Shown: positions 907 to 8,243 of the stretch, piece by piece
Position numbering within the stretch: position 1 is the first letter of the stretch
Layout of the letters: each line of letters starts with the position of its first letter
NCBI GenBank assembly: GCA_002742765.1
Contig: DLUF01000060.1
Coordinates: forward strand, 1-32,953
Length of the DNA stretch: 32,953 nt
Source of the DNA: Sulfurospirillum sp. UBA12182
Lineage (GTDB): Bacteria > Campylobacterota > Campylobacteria > Campylobacterales > Sulfurospirillaceae
Direction of reading: 5' to 3'
Notes under the pieces: model-generated
What the model was told of the DNA's origin: nothing
What the model saw: the letters and a program-made list of their open reading frames with translations, nothing else
The model's database searches: none
Made by a program: the position numbers and the translations under genes

Positions 907-1362
907 TTATTGTATAGAAATGTAAATTTCAATTTCATTTTGATTTTTATAATATTCAAAATCAGTTTTATACGCTCTTTTATATTGAGAATTTTCATTT
1001 GAAAAATATTCCCAAATTTCGCCCCAAGTTTCTATGACTGCTTGTACTCTGGAGTTATCATTATTTTCTTTATATATTTTATTAAACACTAGGTATTTAC
1101 CTGTTTCAATTTTTATGCTTTCTAACTTCTCATTGGAAGTTTCATATCCTGCTAATACATCAAATTCACCATTTGCATCTGATTCATAGTTATAGTAAAC
1201 CCCGTAAACTCTCTCCCCACCTTTATAATCTACATCTACAGTTCCATCAAATTTTTGCCATACTGCGCCTATCTTTGCAGTTTGCGGATTCATTTCATCC
1301 TCATTTTTTGTTCTTGTTGAAATACCGTAAATCATTTTTTCTTCGATTTTGACTACTCTCAT
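907..1362 (-). CDS. GyrI-like small-molecule-binding protein
   Basis: A 151-residue stand-alone effector-binding domain of the GyrI/AraC-effector (SOUL-like) type. It starts MRVVKIEEKMIYGIS, like the opening strand of the family (xxVxxxPxxxVaGi). It has the central V-Y-G-V-Y-Y-NYESDANGEFDVLAGYE stretch, followed by a basic strand and the G-K-Y-L-V-F segment. It ends in W…E…Y…R…FE.Y, the usual closing W/E/FE positions of the fold. Members bind amphipathic or cationic small molecules or inhibit gyrase; no DNA-binding domain is attached here. Such domains are frequent as free-standing integron cassette genes. Good SD: AAGGAAG upstream of the ATG. Specific ligand unknown. Confidence 0.75.
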   Translation of the reverse strand: MRVVKIEEKMIYGISTRTKNEDEMNPQTAKIGAVWQKFDGTVDVDYKGGERVYGVYYNYESDANGEFDVLAGYETSNEKLESIKIETGKYLVFNKIYKENNDNSRVQAVIETWGEIWEYFSNENSQYKRAYKTDFEYYKNQNEIEIYISIQ

Positions 1363-2001: not shown

Positions 2002-2071
2002 AGATAACGGTTGAGTTGAGAAATAGTTGTGCCCGCAGGGTCAACTATTTCTCTCCAAAGTTTTGTTAGAT
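2002..2071 (-). other. attC of the DUF2971 cassette
   Basis: R'' ATCTAAC (2065-2071) and R' GTTATCT (2002-2008) enclose an imperfect palindrome with arms GAGAAATAGTTG and CAACTATTTCTC and a CCC/GGG inner stem. About 70 bp. The stop codon TAA of the DUF2971 gene lies inside R''. Confidence 0.8.
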
Positions 2072-2790
2072 TAACTATATATTGGATTTCCCAATAAACT
2101 GCTGATTCTAATTTTATCTGTAATACCATGTTCTTCACATACATTTAATATTTTTTTTCTATCCTGCTTATCAATTGATGGACCAAGATATATGTTATTT
2201 ATCAAAATTGTGGGATTGACTTTCACCAAAATACCATGTTCAGGAACTGAAACACCAACTTCTTCTGCCATTCTTAAAGATATTGCAAGTCTAAATTCAT
2301 TTTCCCATGAAAAAGCATTATGCTTATAAAAAAATCTTTCAAGCACATTCGTGTTAACTTTCTCTTCCATAAGATTAATATATTGAATTTTACCTACATG
2401 TAAAGTTTCACTTCTATAGTTAGGTTTTATTCTATATGGTTCTAATGATTCTATAAGTGTCTCAATTGTAGTTGTTATTGCAAAACCTTTTTTTGAGTCT
2501 GCATATAACTTCCACATTGCATCATTTTCACAATCTGACATATGCCAACATGTAATTTTTGTTAATCTTCTAAGTTCAGCAAAAGCATGTTCAAAATTGT
2601 TATCTTGTTGAATTTCCATTCCTTGAGGTTTAATAGCAATAGCACCTTCATAAGGGTCATCTGTAAATTGTGTTGCAGATGAAAAATAAATTTCTTTTTT
2701 GTTTAGTATATCAATCAATCTATCAGGCTTAACATATCTCCAAAGTTTTTGCTTATTATCGTAATCATTTATTTTATTTACTGTCTTCAT
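2071..2790 (-). CDS. DUF2971 cassette protein
   Basis: A 239-residue protein with the DUF2971 signature: LWRYVKPDRLIDILNKKEIYFSS…FTDDPYEG near the N-terminus, CWHMSDCENDAMWKLYADSKKGFAI in the middle, and F-Y-K-H-N-A-F-S-W-E-N-E-F-R-L towards the C-terminus. Function is not established; the family is common in mobile regions and some members occur near defence genes. It occupies its own cassette: the start lies about 22 bases inside the preceding core site and the TAA stop is inside R'' of its attC. The SD is weak (TGGAAT, about 6 bases before ATG). No promoter was identified in the short leader, so it may rely on read-through from upstream cassettes. Confidence 0.82.
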   Translation of the reverse strand: MKTVNKINDYDNKQKLWRYVKPDRLIDILNKKEIYFSSATQFTDDPYEGAIAIKPQGMEIQQDNNFEHAFAELRRLTKITCWHMSDCENDAMWKLYADSKKGFAITTTIETLIESLEPYRIKPNYRSETLHVGKIQYINLMEEKVNTNVLERFFYKHNAFSWENEFRLAISLRMAEEVGVSVPEHGILVKVNPTILINNIYLGPSIDKQDRKKILNVCEEHGITDKIRISSLLGNPIYS

Positions 2791-2805: not shown

Positions 2806-2873
2806 ATCTAACGACTGAATATAGCCAATAAATTTCCGTTAGGTAATTTATTGGCTACTATGATTTGTTATAG
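2806..2873 (-). other. attC of the graspetide-like cassette
   Basis: R'' CTATAAC (2867-2873) and R' GTTAGAT (2806-2812) flank an AT-rich stem with arms AGCCAATAAATTACC and GGAAATTTATTGGCT. About 68 bp. The last eight codons and the stop of the precursor gene (stop 2848-2850) lie inside this site. Confidence 0.85.
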
Positions 2874-3177
2874 ATTTTGTTTTTATATCAATGCTTAATA
2901 AATCCAAAAGATAATTACTTGAATCTGTATCTTCTAGGGAAGCTGTTTTTGTCATACCTATGGTTTCTAAAGTTGGAATAACATCATTATCAGTATCCTC
3001 TAAGGACTCCGTAATAGTCCTTCCATATATATCATTATCAGTATCTTCTAAAGATTTTGTAATTGTTCTTCCAAAATTATTATCATTATCAGAATCCTCT
3101 AAACTTCGTGTCATAGTTGATGCTGAAATATTATTTTCTAATATAATTTCAAAACTTGACAAATAAGGCTTTTTCAT
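2848..3177 (-). CDS. Candidate multi-core graspetide precursor peptide
   Basis: A 109-residue peptide. A short N-terminal segment (residues 1-18, MKKPYLSSFEIILENN…) may be the leader that the ligase binds. It is followed by four repeats: T21-M-T-R-S-L-E-D-S-D, T38-I-T-K-S-L-E-D-T-D-N-D, T54-I-T-E-S-L-E-D-T-D-N-D and M75-T-K-T-A-S-L-E-D-T-D, spaced 17, 16 and 22 residues apart. Each carries Thr/Ser donors followed by Glu/Asp acceptors, the layout in which ATP-grasp ligases form side-chain ester or amide links. There is no cysteine and no transmembrane segment. The start overlaps the stop of the membrane-protein gene (ATGA). The C-terminal residues 102-109 are read from attC. I do not recognise this repeat from the named graspetide groups; the precursor role is inferred from repeat pattern and neighbours. 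Confidence 0.75.
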   Translation of the reverse strand: MKKPYLSSFEIILENNISASTMTRSLEDSDNDNNFGRTITKSLEDTDNDIYGRTITESLEDTDNDVIPTLETIGMTKTASLEDTDSSNYLLDLLSIDIKTKSITNHSSQ

Positions 3178-4031
3178 TTGCTTCCTCCTATAAAAATATA
3201 TAGTATAGTTATTATAGCCATAATTAATAAGCTTCTATGTAAAAATAATTCTACATTTTTTACATAACTAACATGCATTTGTGAAAATAATTCAGTCCAC
3301 TTCATATTTGAATAATAGAATTTAAATTTACTATAGTTAATAGTTCCATCAATAAAGTCATCATATGTTTCTCTTATAAATGTACTCACTGACATAGATT
3401 GTAAATTAAATATTATCATATTTGTTAATAGAATGACTAGGTAATAAAATAATACTTTCAAGATTAAATTATCATCAACTATTTCAGTATAAAAACATTT
3501 TATGTCATTTAATTGTGTGAAGATTATTGATATAAAAGCTGCCACAAGTGTAACATAAAAAGTTCCTTTTGTTCTGGCTGTATTTTTTGAATCATTATAA
3601 ACATTTATATCATCTTTTAAAATCTCAATAGATATATTTTGCCATTTAGAATCATATTGATGGTAATTACTTTGCAAAAAATTATCAATTTCAGTTTTTG
3701 TTTTATCTATTTTTTGACTTATAATATTTTTTAAAGAAAGTAGATAGATAAAATCAAATTTTTCTCTCCAAGTGAAAAAATAAATCTTATAACTTCCAAA
3801 GGGAATCATTAAAAGTGAAAATCTGTATTTGATTTTTTCAGGATTATAATCGTTTTCAATAGTATGAAATTTTTCATCATGAGATAGTTGGAAAAAAGGT
3901 ATATCTGATAAGATGATTTTTTTAATATATTTAGCGATAGGATGATTTATTTCATAAATTAATCTAGCTACAATAAAGTATATAATAACAATTATAGTAA
4001 ATAAGCTAACATGATATACAATCTCAAGCAT
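3174..4031 (-). CDS. Unknown four-helix membrane protein in graspetide-like operon
   Basis: I do not recognise this 285-residue protein. Hydrophobic segments lie at about 7-27, 157-174, 190-211 and 265-282. A large polar region (about 28-156), rich in Lys, Asp and aromatic residues, follows the first helix, and a polar loop (about 212-262) lies between helices 3 and 4. No Walker motifs, protease motifs or Cys pairs are visible, so it is neither an ABC exporter nor a C39 peptidase. It overlaps the ligase gene by 8 bases and the precursor gene by 4, so it must be translated with them. Plausible roles are export, self-protection or membrane anchoring of the ligase; none can be chosen from sequence. 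Very AT-rich, like the rest of the cassette. Confidence 0.7.
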   Translation of the reverse strand: MLEIVYHVSLFTIIVIIYFIVARLIYEINHPIAKYIKKIILSDIPFFQLSHDEKFHTIENDYNPEKIKYRFSLLMIPFGSYKIYFFTWREKFDFIYLLSLKNIISQKIDKTKTEIDNFLQSNYHQYDSKWQNISIEILKDDINVYNDSKNTARTKGTFYVTLVAAFISIIFTQLNDIKCFYTEIVDDNLILKVLFYYLVILLTNMIIFNLQSMSVSTFIRETYDDFIDGTINYSKFKFYYSNMKWTELFSQMHVSYVKNVELFLHRSLLIMAIITILYIFIGGSK

Positions 4032-4926
4032 CTAAATACCTCATAATTTTATCTGAAATATCCAAATTTAATTTATTTTCTAGCCATAGCCATTGTCCAT
4101 TTGGATTACATTCTAAAAAATAATACATATTACCTTTTACCATATAATCAAAAGCACCAAATTTCAAGTTCGTATAATTAATAAATTTCATACATTCATC
4201 ATATATTATTTTTGGTGTATCAATAAATTCATATATTGCATTATTGTTATTTCTCCAATCAACTTGATTTGAGGTTATTTTCACTGTATAAAAAGTGTTA
4301 TCTATAAATGTTATTCTTAATTCATAGTCTGCCTCTATTTTTGTTTGAAAATATGTTGGACTAAGTTCAATATTATCAATTTTTTCATTAACAGTATTTG
4401 TCAGAATATACTTATGCTCTGTAATTTTGCCTGTAGATAATGGTTTGGCAATCCACTTATAAGGTTCAATTTTTTTATTAACAAAATTGTAATCATTAGA
4501 AATAATACTTTTAGGACAGTTAAAACCTAATTTCTTTGCAATGAATAACTGATAAACCTTATTTTCTATTTGTCTTAAAAAAGTTGGCTTAGATAAAACC
4601 TTCCCTTCAAAAGAGTCCACTAAACCAATTATAAAATTATATATTTCTTTTTGCATATAGTTTCTATATTTTTCTTCATAATCATTTAGGGAAGGTAAAA
4701 ATATTTTTCTAAAATATATTGATTTTATTTGTCTAAATAAATCTTTAATAATTAAATTAGCTTGGATATCTTCATAATAGATGTAATCATCTGTAATAGA
4801 GATTTTATATTTTTCTAGTTCATCTAAATTTAGTCTAATAATATTATATTTGACACAGTAATTTTGAATGAGAAAATCTACTGTAGTATCATATGAAGAT
4901 GTTACAATCAAAATATATTTTTTCAT
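4024..4926 (-). CDS. ATP-grasp ligase of the MvdC/MvdD graspetide type
   Basis: A 300-residue ATP-grasp enzyme. These ligases phosphorylate Asp/Glu side chains of a precursor peptide and join them to Thr/Ser (ester) or Lys (amide) side chains. Seen here: an N-terminal domain ending in S-I-Y-F-R-K-I-F-L-P (69-78), equivalent to the YxRR segment of the family; the ATP-binding Lys in W-I-A-K-P-L-S-T-G (K161); the Y-E-L-R-I-T strand (E202, R204); and the C-terminal FGAFDYMV…YYFLECNPNGQWLWLE (D260, E272, N274), whose NPNGQW box is the clearest mark of MvdC/MvdD-like and GRASP-type peptide maturases. Length fits the family (about 300-330). SD AAGGA lies 5 bases before ATG, and the start is about 22 bases inside the cassette. 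First gene of a three-gene overlapping operon with a repeat peptide last. Confidence 0.88.
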   Translation of the reverse strand: MKKYILIVTSSYDTTVDFLIQNYCVKYNIIRLNLDELEKYKISITDDYIYYEDIQANLIIKDLFRQIKSIYFRKIFLPSLNDYEEKYRNYMQKEIYNFIIGLVDSFEGKVLSKPTFLRQIENKVYQLFIAKKLGFNCPKSIISNDYNFVNKKIEPYKWIAKPLSTGKITEHKYILTNTVNEKIDNIELSPTYFQTKIEADYELRITFIDNTFYTVKITSNQVDWRNNNNAIYEFIDTPKIIYDECMKFINYTNLKFGAFDYMVKGNMYYFLECNPNGQWLWLENKLNLDISDKIMRYLDA

Positions 4927-4941
4927 TAGATTCCTTAATAT

Positions 4942-5025
4942 CTATAACGGCAGCGCGGGTGAGCGACGGGCATTGGTAACCCAGTAGGGTTTCCGATGGT
5001 TGCTTGCTCCTCCCGCTTGTTATCT
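4942..5025 (-). other. attC of gene-less cassette 2
   Basis: R'' AGATAAC (5019-5025) and R' GTTATAG (4942-4948) enclose an imperfect stem (for example GGAAACCC against GGGTTACC near the loop). About 84 bp and GC-rich, unlike the AT-rich attC sites of the coding cassettes. A longer reading of the site, out to GATAAC at 5070-5075, is also possible because 4944-4958 and 5060-5074 form a perfect 15-bp inverted repeat. Confidence 0.7.
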
Positions 5026-5100
5026 GGCGCGAAGCGACAGGTGACTAGCGGAGGTTCAGCCGCGCTGCCGTTATCTCGGATGCGTAGCGTCCGAGATAAC
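4948..5100 (-). repeat. Gene-less structured cassette 2
   Basis: The stretch between the core sites at 5100 and 4948 has no credible ORF. It starts with a 31-bp palindrome (5070-5100, GTTATCTCGGA…TCCGAGATAAC). A GGCAGCGCGG arm then pairs with CCGCGCTGCC at the far end. A second hairpin follows (GTCACCTG…CAGATAAC on the - strand), then the attC. It is clearly more GC-rich than the flanking cassettes. The first 85 bases match gene-less cassette 1 (6801-6977) in length and in position of every structural element. Confidence 0.75.
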
Positions 5101-5162
5101 GTTTAAAATGAGCTAATAAATTGCCCGTAGGGTAATTTATTGGTTCCTCTGATTTGTTAGAC
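5094..5162 (-). other. attC of the YkgJ-like cassette
   Basis: R'' GTCTAAC (5156-5162) and R' GTTATCT (5094-5100) flank a stem with arms AATAAATTACCC and GGGCAATTTATT around a TAC loop. About 69 bp. The upstream gene stops 3 bases before R''. Confidence 0.85.
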
Positions 5163-5165
5163 TTT

Positions 5166-5708
5166 CTATTTATTTTTAGTCTTTTGAAAATAATATCTGA
5201 TATCTTTTATTTCTGGACTTATTGTTTTAATTATAGCTGCCATCTGTTCATACATTGGTACACCTCTTCCAAAATATGCTCCATAAAGCTGATGTTCTTC
5301 ATTTGTTTCACAATACTTTGGATCATCTAATGTATGCATTGTTCGACAAGAAAAAGGTCTAACATTGTATATACTACAACTGTTATTAATTAAAAATGGA
5401 CAATCCCAATTTTTATTAAAATAATTATTAGAAATTAGATGTTCAGTATTATCCTGAATATATTGTGCTTCTAATTTAGTTATTTGTATCTCATTTTTAC
5501 AGCAAGCAGAACAGCCATTATGGCAAACTGAAAAAGTATCAACAAATTTATTGTATGAATCTAAAAAATCATATATTTTTTCTAATTTTTCATTATTGTT
5601 TTTTATAAAATTCAATTGATGAATTGTATTTTTAAACTCGCTTTGTAACTCTTGTGGTATTGGTGGCAAATCTGTAATTTCTGATTTATTTTTATATGTT
5701 TTAATCAT
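5166..5708 (-). CDS. YkgJ-family cysteine-cluster protein
   Basis: A 180-residue protein with the CxxxCxxCC motif of the YkgJ/UPF0153 family (C62, C66, C69, C70) and the second cluster CPFLINNSC-S-I-Y-x-x-R-P-F-S-C-R (C103, C111, C121), plus C133. These cysteines are thought to bind zinc or an iron-sulfur cluster; the biochemical role is unsettled. Charged coil-forming helices make up residues 15-60. The SD (GAGGAAA, 6 bases before the ATG) lies in the remnant of a decayed attC, so the gene is now effectively the second gene of a bicistronic cassette with the membrane protein at 5748-6764. It has its own intact attC downstream. Confidence 0.85.
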   Translation of the reverse strand: MIKTYKNKSEITDLPPIPQELQSEFKNTIHQLNFIKNNNEKLEKIYDFLDSYNKFVDTFSVCHNGCSACCKNEIQITKLEAQYIQDNTEHLISNNYFNKNWDCPFLINNSCSIYNVRPFSCRTMHTLDDPKYCETNEEHQLYGAYFGRGVPMYEQMAAIIKTISPEIKDIRYYFQKTKNK

Positions 5709-5710
5709 TC

Positions 5711-5753
5711 AATTTCCTCATGTTAATTTATTATCTCCCCTGATTTGTTAGAC
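5711..5753 (-). other. Half attC between fused cassettes
   Basis: Begins GTCTAACAAATCAG (5740-5753) and continues GGGAGATAATAAATTAACATG, closely paralleling the first half of the attC at 5094-5162 (GTCTAACAAATCAGAGGAACC). The second stem arm and the GTT core are missing before the ATG of the next gene at 5708. The stop codon of the upstream gene sits inside the GTCTAAC core. Confidence 0.65.
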
Positions 5754-6764
5754 ATTTGTTGATTTCTCTGTTTTACTTTTACTTTCTAAAAGTTCTCGTA
5801 TTTTTTTATTATCAAGTTCCCAGTTTGGCTTTTCGTTAGGGTAATAGGTATTGACTATTTCATCATAAAGCTTGTCAACTTCTTGAATATAGTCACTATC
5901 AGGATTATAGTATTTAATAGTTTCTCTTCGTATTGTCCAAAATCCACCATGAAATTCTTTTGCATCAATTCCTGATATTACCTTATGATAATCATTGACA
6001 ATTTTGGTTGCGCCAAGATGCACACTTTCATTATCATTTATATATCTTTCTGTAGTAACCTGCATAATCCCTAATGTTTTAGCAAAGCCACAATAGAAGA
6101 GTAGATTTTCTATCAATCTATACACTTTGGGGCGATTAAATGCTTCAGTAATTAAAATAGCATAAATTAAAGCTTCTAATTTTTTCGTCTCTGCGATTTC
6201 CTCAATAATTTTTCCGTAAGCATTTTTATACTTTGTGTAACGATTATCTAGATAATTGGCTTTACGTGCTTTTGTACGTTCGTCAGAAAGTTTGACACTA
6301 TTGAATGTATGATAAATATATGCAATGATTGCCAACCAGACGGCGCTTCCTAGCTCATCAGCAGTTGGAAATAAAAATTCTTTGTGTAGTATTAATTTAT
6401 CATATACATAATATGACATGGGTATGGAAACTAACATATAGGCAATTTGTGTGAACCAGTTAAGGAGTAAGCCACGCCCTGTTATTAAATTAAACGCTAG
6501 TCTGAATACAAAGTAATAAACGACAACCAAATATATATTTTCTATTAACCAGTTTTGATTCAACTGATAAAAAACTGCTGAAATAACAGTAATGTAAGCT
6601 ACTGGAGAAAAAGCTCTATAAAGAAAGTTAAATGCTGGGGCTTCATCGGCTTTTGCTAATATTGACATTCTAATGTATCCAGCATGAATTGAATGTTGTC
6701 CAATCCAATTCAGTAGATAAAATAGAATAATAGCTAATCCTATATGCGACATAATTAAATTCAA
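5748..6764 (-). CDS. Membrane protein with lytic transglycosylase-like domain
   Basis: A 338-residue protein. About five hydrophobic segments fill the N-terminal half (about 8-23, 52-68, 76-95, 103-121, 138-155). A soluble C-terminal half carries I-L-I-T-E207-A-F-N-R-P, then T-L-G-I-M-Q-V (230-236) and a helix with E-S-V-H-L-G-A-T-K-I-V-N-D-Y. This order (Glu, then G-[IL]-M-Q-[IV], then a G-x-x-x-[LI] helix) is that of the lysozyme-like transglycosylase fold, with E207 as candidate catalytic acid. It lacks a signal peptide, so the topology of that domain is open. The start is taken as TTG 6764 because AAAGGAA lies 7-8 bases before it; ATG 6752 is the alternative. First coding cassette after attI. 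Assignment of activity is an inference. Confidence 0.6.
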   Translation of the reverse strand: MNLIMSHIGLAIILFYLLNWIGQHSIHAGYIRMSILAKADEAPAFNFLYRAFSPVAYITVISAVFYQLNQNWLIENIYLVVVYYFVFRLAFNLITGRGLLLNWFTQIAYMLVSIPMSYYVYDKLILHKEFLFPTADELGSAVWLAIIAYIYHTFNSVKLSDERTKARKANYLDNRYTKYKNAYGKIIEEIAETKKLEALIYAILITEAFNRPKVYRLIENLLFYCGFAKTLGIMQVTTERYINDNESVHLGATKIVNDYHKVISGIDAKEFHGGFWTIRRETIKYYNPDSDYIQEVDKLYDEIVNTYYPNEKPNWELDNKKIRELLESKSKTEKSTNV

Positions 6765-7123: not shown

Positions 7124-7280
7124 ATTTTTATACTAAATTTTAATTTTTTGATATAGTTTCAATGTATAGTTTAGATGGGAATATCGGTAATAAAACAACA
7201 TTATGTACTATTATTTGTTAAAAATCGTAATAAACCTACATAATGTTGGCTTTTATATTTATTTAAGAAAGGAGAATATT

Positions 7281-8243
7281 GTGGGTAAAAAGTTATTAGA
7301 AATCATGAGAGATAAGATTAGATTTAAACATTATAGTATAAAAACTGAACAAGTATATTTACATTGGTCAAAAAGGTATATACTTTTCCATAATAAACGA
7401 CATCCCAAAGAGATGGGTAAAATAGAGATTGAGCAGTTTCTAACACACCTTGCAAAAGTTCAGAATTTATCAGCAACCTCACAAAACCAAGCGTTCAATG
7501 CTTTATTGTTTCTTTATGAGCAAGTATTAAATATATCATTAAAAGATCAAAATATTCAAGCATTAAGAGCCCAAGAGAGAAAACATATACCAGTAGTCTT
7601 AACAATTGATGAAGTAAAAAGTATTATATTAAATATGACGGGTATTTATCAGCTTATGGTAAAGCTAATGTATGGTTGCGGTCTTAGAATGAAGGAAGTA
7701 CAAAATATAAGAATAAAAGATATTGACTTTGGATTTGATAAACTGTATATATGGGACAGTAAGTCATTAAAAGATAGAACTTTGCCATTACCATCAAAAA
7801 TAAAAGATGAACTTAAGCTTCAAGTTGAAAAAGTAAAAGAGATTCACAATAAAGATTTAAAAGATGGTTTTGGAAGTGTATATATTCCCTATGCACTAGA
7901 ACGAAAATTTCCAAGAGCTAAGCATGAAACCAAATGGCAATATGTTTTTCCTATGGATACTATCTCTACAGATCCAAGAAGCGGTGAGAAAAGGCGTCAT
8001 CATATTTTAGATGTAACTTTGAGTAGAAACATCAAAAAAGCAGTTATGCAATCGAAAATTGATAAAAGAGTGACTTCTCACATTTTTAGACACAGTTACG
8101 CCACTCATTTATTGCAAGCGGGGATAGATTTGCGTTCTATTCAAGAATTATTGGGTCACAAGAGTGTAGAAACAACTATGATTTACACCCATGTAGTTTC
8201 GGAAATGAATAAAGCTAAACTTGTCAGCCCTTTAGATTTTTAG
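7281..8243 (+). CDS. intI: Integron integrase IntI
   Basis: A 320-residue tyrosine recombinase that inserts and excises cassettes at attI/attC. The N-terminal SAM-like domain ([18 protein letters not shown]…HPKEM, residues 17-45) and the C-terminal catalytic domain are both intact: R136 (GCGLRMKE), K164 (SLKDR), H267 and R270 ([13 protein letters not shown]), H293 (LLGHKS) and Y302 (TTMIYTHV). The IntI-specific insertion is present (ALERKFPRA near 205-213 and [13 protein letters not shown] near 229-241) and separates it from XerC/D. Start chosen at GTG 7281 because AAGAAAGGAG lies 6 bases upstream and the length then fits known IntI (about 320-340); an in-frame ATG at 7203 would add 26 unrelated residues. 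It diverges from the array, as usual. Confidence 0.97.

What the first reader, a model, noticed from the sequence alone, without database searches (positions are those of the whole stretch)
2806..4948. A complete graspetide-like peptide pathway on an integron cassette
Seen: one cassette bounded by core sites at 4948 and 2812 carries an ATP-grasp ligase with the NPNGQW signature, a membrane protein, and a 109-residue peptide with four T-x-T-x-S-L-E-D-(S/T)-D repeats. The genes overlap by 8 and 4 bases. Known: MvdC/MvdD-type ligases link Thr/Ser/Lys to Asp/Glu in precursor peptides. Inference: this is a multi-core graspetide system that moves as one cassette. I know of no integron cassette described as carrying such a pathway, and the repeat does not match the core motifs I recall (microviridin TxKYPSD, plesiocin TTxxxxEE).
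Basis: partly seen in the sequence, partly recalled or inferred. Interest (0 to 1): 0.93.

Follow-up and report, generated by a model that had tools for sequence, protein, structure and literature searches.

The report
Cross-linked-peptide operon on integron cassette
A single mobile gene cassette carries three genes that together should make a peptide whose side chains are stitched into small rings; relatives of this gene set sit in phages and among anti-phage genes, so it may be a tool of bacterial conflict rather than an ordinary secreted natural product.

Summary
One 2,136-bp cassette (4948..2813, minus strand) holds an ATP-grasp ligase, a membrane protein and a 109-aa peptide with four TxTxSLED(S/T)D repeats. 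It ends in a real attC: a covariance model built without this site still finds it with 60.5 bits, E 9e-13. An intact integron integrase lies at 7203-8243. The ligase is a graspetide synthetase (SAV_5884, MvdC and MvdD models 135-109 bits; RimK 25 bits). It falls in a fully supported seven-member clade of Bacillota, Ignavibacteriota and virus-contig loci. All six relatives have the same gene order (ligase, three-TM membrane protein, peptide), five of them with a multi-repeat peptide. The repeats match the relatives' TxxTxxxExxDxD pattern minus one residue, so the core is a variant of the thuringinin type, not unprecedented. What is new is the vehicle: no integron-borne RiPP pathway was found in the papers held, and none of 93 related loci shows an attC. 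A conflict role is my inference; it is untested.

The parts
2813..4948 (-). graspetide gene cassette, 2,136 bp, three overlapping genes
   Evidence: core sites GTTATAG 4948 and GTTAGAT 2812; attC model
4024..4926 (-). ATP-grasp graspetide synthetase, 300 aa
   Evidence: TIGR04187 3.3e-39, MvdC 9.4e-37, MvdD 2e-31; clade profile A10 hits CdnC 7mgv 1.9e-53; K123, K161, D260, E272, N274 invariant in the clade
3174..4031 (-). membrane partner protein, 285 aa, three conserved TM helices plus an N-terminal hydrophobic helix; no known family or fold
   Evidence: no Pfam/NCBIfam hit; hhalign between the two graspetide-associated membrane protein sets 96.6%, E 5e-10; AlphaFold pLDDT 86, pTM 0.80; no Foldseek match at E<=0.001 in PDB or BFVD
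2848..3177 (-). multicore precursor peptide, 109 aa, pI 4.2, no Cys
3139..3177 (-). leader MKKPYLSSFEIIL, matches the clade's M-K-P-Y-I-x-x-F/Y start
   Evidence: alignment A11; Phhx(1,2)h leader motif in PMC8939145
3082..3117 (-). core repeat 1 TMTRSLEDSDND
3031..3066 (-). core repeat 2 TITKSLEDTDND
2983..3018 (-). core repeat 3 TITESLEDTDND
2917..2952 (-). core repeat 4 TKTASLEDTDSS (last Asp missing)
3184..3189 (-). Shine-Dalgarno AGGAGG of the peptide gene
   Evidence: sequence
2806..2873 (-). attC of the graspetide cassette
   Evidence: leave-one-out model R2: 60.5 bits, E 9e-13; hairpin on the bottom strand
4942..5100 (-). 31-bp hairpin (5100-5070) plus long GC-rich attC (5077-4942) directly before the cassette; no ORF; same design at 6977-6795
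   Evidence: folds
5094..5162 (-). attC of the preceding cassette (CxxCxxCC protein)
2002..2071 (-). attC of the following cassette (DUF2971)
2071..2790 (-). next cassette: DUF2971 protein, PADLOC candidate defence family PDC-S31
   Evidence: Pfam 1.1e-6; PADLOC 2.8e-27
7203..8243 (+). integron integrase, divergent from the array
   Evidence: TIGR02249 2.6e-120, 401.5 bits

Best explanation
The cassette is a thuringinin-type multicore graspetide operon. The ATP-grasp ligase binds the leader (MKKPYLSSF...) of the 109-aa peptide. It phosphorylates Glu/Asp side chains in each repeat and joins them to the Thr (Ser) hydroxyls of the same repeat, probably two ester links per repeat, giving a chain of small bicyclic hairpins. 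The three-TM protein, whose start overlaps the ligase stop and which accompanies most relatives, works with the product at the membrane, as exporter, anchor or effector. The operon moves as one unit through attC x attI recombination. Shown: family of the ligase, gene order and its conservation, repeats, attC, integrase. Inferred: ester chemistry and number of links, leader binding, role of the membrane protein, mobility of this cassette today. What the product is for is left to the first two rivals (conflict with phages, or a secreted product).
For: Ligase scores; clade profile against solved graspetide ligases: CdnC, two 'ATP grasp ligase' entries (5ig8, 5ig9) and AMdnB, E 1e-49 to 1e-53; tree: window with L014-L017, L094 and L095, support 100/100, all with the order ligase, membrane protein, peptide. 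Likely active-site residues intact. Repeats aligned with relatives' TxxTxxxExxDxD. In 80 genome loci the membrane protein is adjacent in 63, a core-bearing peptide in 72, both with at least 2 cores in 51. attC leave-one-out, independent attC sites elsewhere in the same genome, integrase. Only 1 of 44 genomes of the family has this ligase, as expected for cargo.
Against: No mass data. The core motif has one residue fewer between the first two Thr than in the nearest relatives, and the fourth repeat lacks an acceptor Asp, so link number and topology cannot be read off. No dedicated protease or ABC exporter is present. The thuringinin reference motif itself comes from memory plus the relatives' alignment; the primary paper was not in the library.
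Confidence: 0.86

Rival explanations
1. On function: the module is an anti-phage or anti-mobile-element system. The cross-linked peptide chain, held with the membrane protein, inhibits or is released by a protease or acts on the membrane during infection; integron, prophage and defence-island carriage reflect this. (Compatible with the best explanation of what the genes are.)
For: Ten neighbours picked by eye all match PADLOC families (REase_I, GajA, PifA, Tmn, QatD, ThsB, REase_III, JAB, HEC-05, HEC-06); of ten further neighbours drawn at random, four match; 30 control proteins, most of them housekeeping genes of the window, gave five family matches in all, so at most five proteins. In L129 the module follows a ThsB-like and a caspase gene with a 10-nt gap. 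Prophage cargo positions in L096, L098 and L099 and a Leptospira phage. Next cassette here is PDC-S31.
Against: Guilt by association only; neighbours were counted on a small sample, half of it picked by eye; PADLOC has no model for the ligase or the membrane protein; mobile elements also collect unrelated cargo.
Confidence: 0.35
2. On function: ordinary secreted natural product, a multicore protease inhibitor or antimicrobial, with the membrane protein as exporter. (Compatible with the best explanation of what the genes are.)
For: Makarova 2022 proposes transport for the thuringinin-specific membrane protein and notes that all characterised graspetides then known were protease inhibitors.
Against: No protease or ABC transporter in the cassette; the predicted three-TM fold has no significant match to any transporter in the PDB; carriage by phages and among defence genes is unusual for a secreted product.
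Confidence: 0.4
3. The ATP-grasp enzyme is a RimK-type or other non-peptide ligase and the repeat ORF is unrelated.
For: Some relatives are annotated rimK; weak TIGR00768 hit, 25.5 bits.
Against: Graspetide models score 109-135 bits; tree and synteny with multicore peptides.
Confidence: 0.02
4. Not a cassette: the operon merely sits near an integron.
For: Three-gene cassettes are uncommon (general knowledge).
Against: Own attC found by a model that excludes it; core sites at both ends; same attC type in neighbours, on another contig of this genome and in related genomes.
Confidence: 0.03

Closest known systems
Thuringinin-type graspetides (precursor cluster 13 and membrane-protein cluster 18 of Makarova et al. 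2022, PMC8939145)
   Same: single ATP-grasp ligase, repeated cores with Thr...Glu...Asp order, a family-specific uncharacterised membrane protein, P-h-h leader
   Different: core one residue shorter (TxTxxxExxDxD); carried on an integron cassette; thuringinin itself was not compared by sequence here
Paenibacillus xylanilyticus locus L014 (closest by tree path; 39% ligase identity)
   Same: order ligase, membrane protein, peptide; leader MKPYIAHF; repeats TRSLEDTRPDD, TTTESLEDSLPDD
   Different: chromosomal contig; no attC found
Virus-contig loci L094 and L095 (ligases 44% and 40% identical)
   Same: order, leader MKPYIMNY, six repeats TxxTxxxExSDxDE
   Different: IMG/VR contigs; membrane protein reading frame split in L094
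Leptospira phage vB_LalZ_80412-LE1 (KF114876)
   Same: ligase plus membrane protein in a phage genome; the near-identical contig locus L097 shows a multicore peptide before them
   Different: precursor first, TKTxxxxExDD cores; ligase annotated RimK-like
Rosaritide MirB/MirC and RODEO groups 34/35 (PMC13097080)
   Same: partner-protein-dependent ligase; long repeated precursors
   Different: MirC is a chaperone-domain partner, not described as a membrane protein; group assignment of the present ligase was not testable here
Plesiocin and chryseoviridin ligases (PDB 7drm and 7mgv; identification of 7drm as the plesiocin ligase is from memory)
   Same: multicore precursors, single ligase, same enzyme family
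   Different: core motif TTxxxxEE in plesiocin (from memory); more distant ligases

Membership tests
Graspetide (ATP-grasp ester/amide cross-linked RiPP) | MvdC/MvdD-like ATP-grasp ligase | tested here: met
   below the curated equivalog cut-offs, as expected for another subgroup
Graspetide (ATP-grasp ester/amide cross-linked RiPP) | adjacent precursor with leader and cores holding Thr/Ser/Lys donors before Asp/Glu acceptors | tested here: met
Graspetide (ATP-grasp ester/amide cross-linked RiPP) | omega-ester or amide links, minus 18 Da each | not testable with these tools
   needs mass spectrometry
Thuringinin-type subgroup | ligase clade with order ligase, membrane protein, repeat precursor | tested here: met
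   tree 100/100, order; that this clade is thuringinin's rests on motif and description, not on TgnB's sequence
Thuringinin-type subgroup | core TxxTxxxExxDxD | tested here: inconclusive
   T-to-E, E-to-D and D-to-D spacings match in three of four repeats; the first Thr is one residue closer; reference motif partly from memory
Thuringinin-type subgroup | sequence relation to thuringinin TgnB itself | not tested
   not found in the collections searched
Integron gene cassette | own attC with paired core sites and a bottom-strand hairpin | tested here: met
Integron gene cassette | integron integrase next to an array of attC-bounded cassettes | tested here: met
Integron gene cassette | integrase-dependent excision or insertion | not testable with these tools
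   bench assay
RimK-type ligases | best match to RimK models | tested here: not met
   25.5 bits against 109-135 for graspetide models
Known anti-phage systems (PADLOC) | match of ligase or membrane protein to a described system | tested here: not met
   no hit for the window's three proteins

The most novel reading that the evidence does not exclude
Ligase, three-TM protein and multicore cross-linked peptide form an undescribed anti-phage (or anti-mobile-element) system that travels in integrons, prophages and defence islands, in one case in an apparent operon with a Thoeris-like ThsB and a caspase; the cross-linked peptide would be its inhibitor, sensor or toxin.
Probability: 0.33. Interest if true: 0.9.

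Novelty: new variant of a known kind. Interest (0 to 1): 0.7.

Why it matters
If right, integrons move whole peptide-modification pathways, not only single resistance or toxin-antitoxin genes, and a ligase and its substrate can be swapped between genomes in one recombination step. The neighbourhood of the wider family makes the biological role of multicore graspetides, which is open, directly testable as phage defence.

Tried and rejected
RimK reading: rejected by scores. Simple regex attC finder: far too noisy (367 hits in 0.9 Mb), replaced by covariance models. Search for the precursor in virus contigs and plasmids: nothing. Search for the membrane protein in plasmids: nothing. Weak PycTM and AbiZ hits of membrane-protein relatives (E 0.015-0.017) and Claudin-3 hits of the profile (E 4e-4 and weaker): judged chance, hydrophobic segments. 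L064 and L062 carry tyrosine recombinases near the module, but they score below the integron cut-off (222 and 171 against 265). No second integron-borne copy among 93 relatives. Foldseek gave no fold for the membrane protein. Rfam has no match. A search of E. coli genomes with one Pseudomonas relative found nothing.

Full report
Observation. On the minus strand the cassette runs from the core site GTTATAG at 4948 to just before GTTAGAT at 2812. Ligase 4926-4024, membrane protein 4031-3174 and peptide 3177-2848 overlap by 8 and 4 bases. The peptide gene has an AGGAGG at 3189-3184. The peptide holds TMTRSLEDSDND, TITKSLEDTDND, TITESLEDTDND and TKTASLEDTDSS at residues 21, 38, 54 and 76. Four hits to T.T...E..[DE] were never reached in 200,000 shuffles, and the repeats differ partly by synonymous codons, which points to selection on the residues.

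Cassette. The integrase at 7203-8243 is an integron integrase (401.5 bits, cut-off 265). Sites at 5162-5094, 2873-2806 and 2071-2002 share one attC design with sites in related genomes, with paired changes in the hairpin. A model made without the graspetide site finds that site at 60.5 bits, E 9e-13. Relatives also have integron integrases (9 of 41 genomes over the cut-off), but only the window's genome has this ligase among 44 of the family. Just before the cassette lies a hairpin plus a long GC-rich attC without an ORF; the same design sits at the start of the array.

Ligase. Graspetide models score 135, 127 and 109 bits, RimK 25. A profile of the clade finds solved graspetide ligases: CdnC 1.9e-53, AMdnB 3.5e-49. 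A 99-sequence tree puts the window with L014 (Paenibacillus), L015, L016 (Clostridia), L017 (Ignavibacteriales) and virus-contig loci L094 and L095, support 100/100 (the bootstrap had not fully settled). These loci share the order ligase, three-TM protein, peptide, and most of the peptides start with M-K-P-Y-I or M-K-K-h-L. In L017 the peptide is short and has one core-like stretch, so its case is weaker. The repeats align with TxxTxxxExxDxD(E), one residue shorter between the first two Thr. I recall TxxTxxxExxDxD as the thuringinin motif; Makarova et al. (PMC8939145) state that such precursors carry repeated cores and that a membrane protein, cluster 18, is specific to thuringinin loci. I could not compare with thuringinin itself.

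Membrane protein. No family matches. By profile comparison it is homologous to the smaller three-TM proteins that follow the ligase in Pseudomonadota and Bacteroidota (96.6%, E 5e-10). AlphaFold gives a confident model (pLDDT 86, pTM 0.80), with a small N-terminal beta part and long helices, and no match in the PDB or the viral library at E up to 0.001. AlphaFold DB was not on hand, so a new fold is not claimed.

Wider family. Of 80 genome loci, 63 have the membrane protein adjacent, 72 a peptide with a core, 51 both with two or more cores. Elsewhere the peptide usually comes first, with TKTxxxxExDD repeats. Several copies are phage cargo: L096 beside a P2-type tail gene (phrog_52, 6.6e-81), L098 between what read as virion genes (one matches phrog_601), L099 between what read as baseplate genes, and a Leptospira phage.

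Neighbours. Ten neighbours picked by eye all match PADLOC defence families, including Gabija GajA at 7.8e-204, PifA, Tmn, QatD, type I and III restriction enzymes and ThsB. Of ten drawn at random from the other 80, four match. A control of 30 proteins, most of them housekeeping genes of the window, gave five family matches in all, among them viperin models that are probably matched by the MoaA-type radical-SAM gene. In L129 the module follows a ThsB-like and a caspase gene in the same direction with a 10-nt gap. In the window the next cassette is a DUF2971 protein of candidate family PDC-S31 (2.8e-27). The sample is small and the eye-picked set is biased, so I treat the defence reading as a lead of about one in three.

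Novelty. No paper held joins integrons with graspetides, ATP-grasp peptide ligases or RiPP cassettes, nor a multicore graspetide with phage defence; one paper links RiPPs in general to phage genes by co-expression (PMC11118758). Most subscription papers and preprints are not held. No other of the 93 relatives shows an attC of this type or a convincing general one.

Verdict. A real, intact-looking graspetide operon of thuringinin type on an integron cassette; new as a vehicle, a variant in its core, and with an unexpected defence-type neighbourhood in its wider family.

Noticed in passing
L129 (G718:C1:3736500-3742000), 4480-1180: ThsB-like TIR gene and caspase gene directly upstream, same strand, of a graspetide ligase, three-TM protein and multicore peptide; looks like a Thoeris-type operon with a graspetide module.
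   Followed up: partly
window 6977-6795 and 5100-4942: Two copies of one design, a 31-bp GTTATC...GATAAC hairpin followed by a long GC-rich attC without an ORF: apparent non-coding mini-cassettes of foreign composition.
   Followed up: partly
window 5709-5747: Remnant attC (GTCTAACAAATCAGGGGAGATAATAAATT) between ORFs 5748-6764 and 5166-5708: two cassettes seem fused.
   Followed up: no
L131 (Leptospira phage KF114876), 3892-5586: Ligase annotated RimK-like in a phage genome is part of a graspetide module; the precursor gene seems truncated in the annotation.
   Followed up: partly
L008 8739-8951 and L130 1926-2144: A second, single-core kind of precursor (ending DVETGEDRKGE / DVERGEDKK) upstream of ligase and three-TM protein, in a genome of the same order as the window's and in Bacilli.
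   Followed up: partly
L006 and L007, 1501-1884: Ligase pseudogenes with an in-frame stop in two genomes of one genus in the same order (different family).
   Followed up: no
window 907-1362 and 1421-1929: Further cassette-array genes: Cass2 effector-binding protein (Pfam 1.2e-21) and a RelBE-like toxin-antitoxin pair (read by eye).
   Followed up: no
L064 238-1326: XerA/integron-like recombinase (222 bits to TIGR02249, below cut-off) 154 nt upstream of a graspetide module in a Bacteroidales genome.
   Followed up: partly
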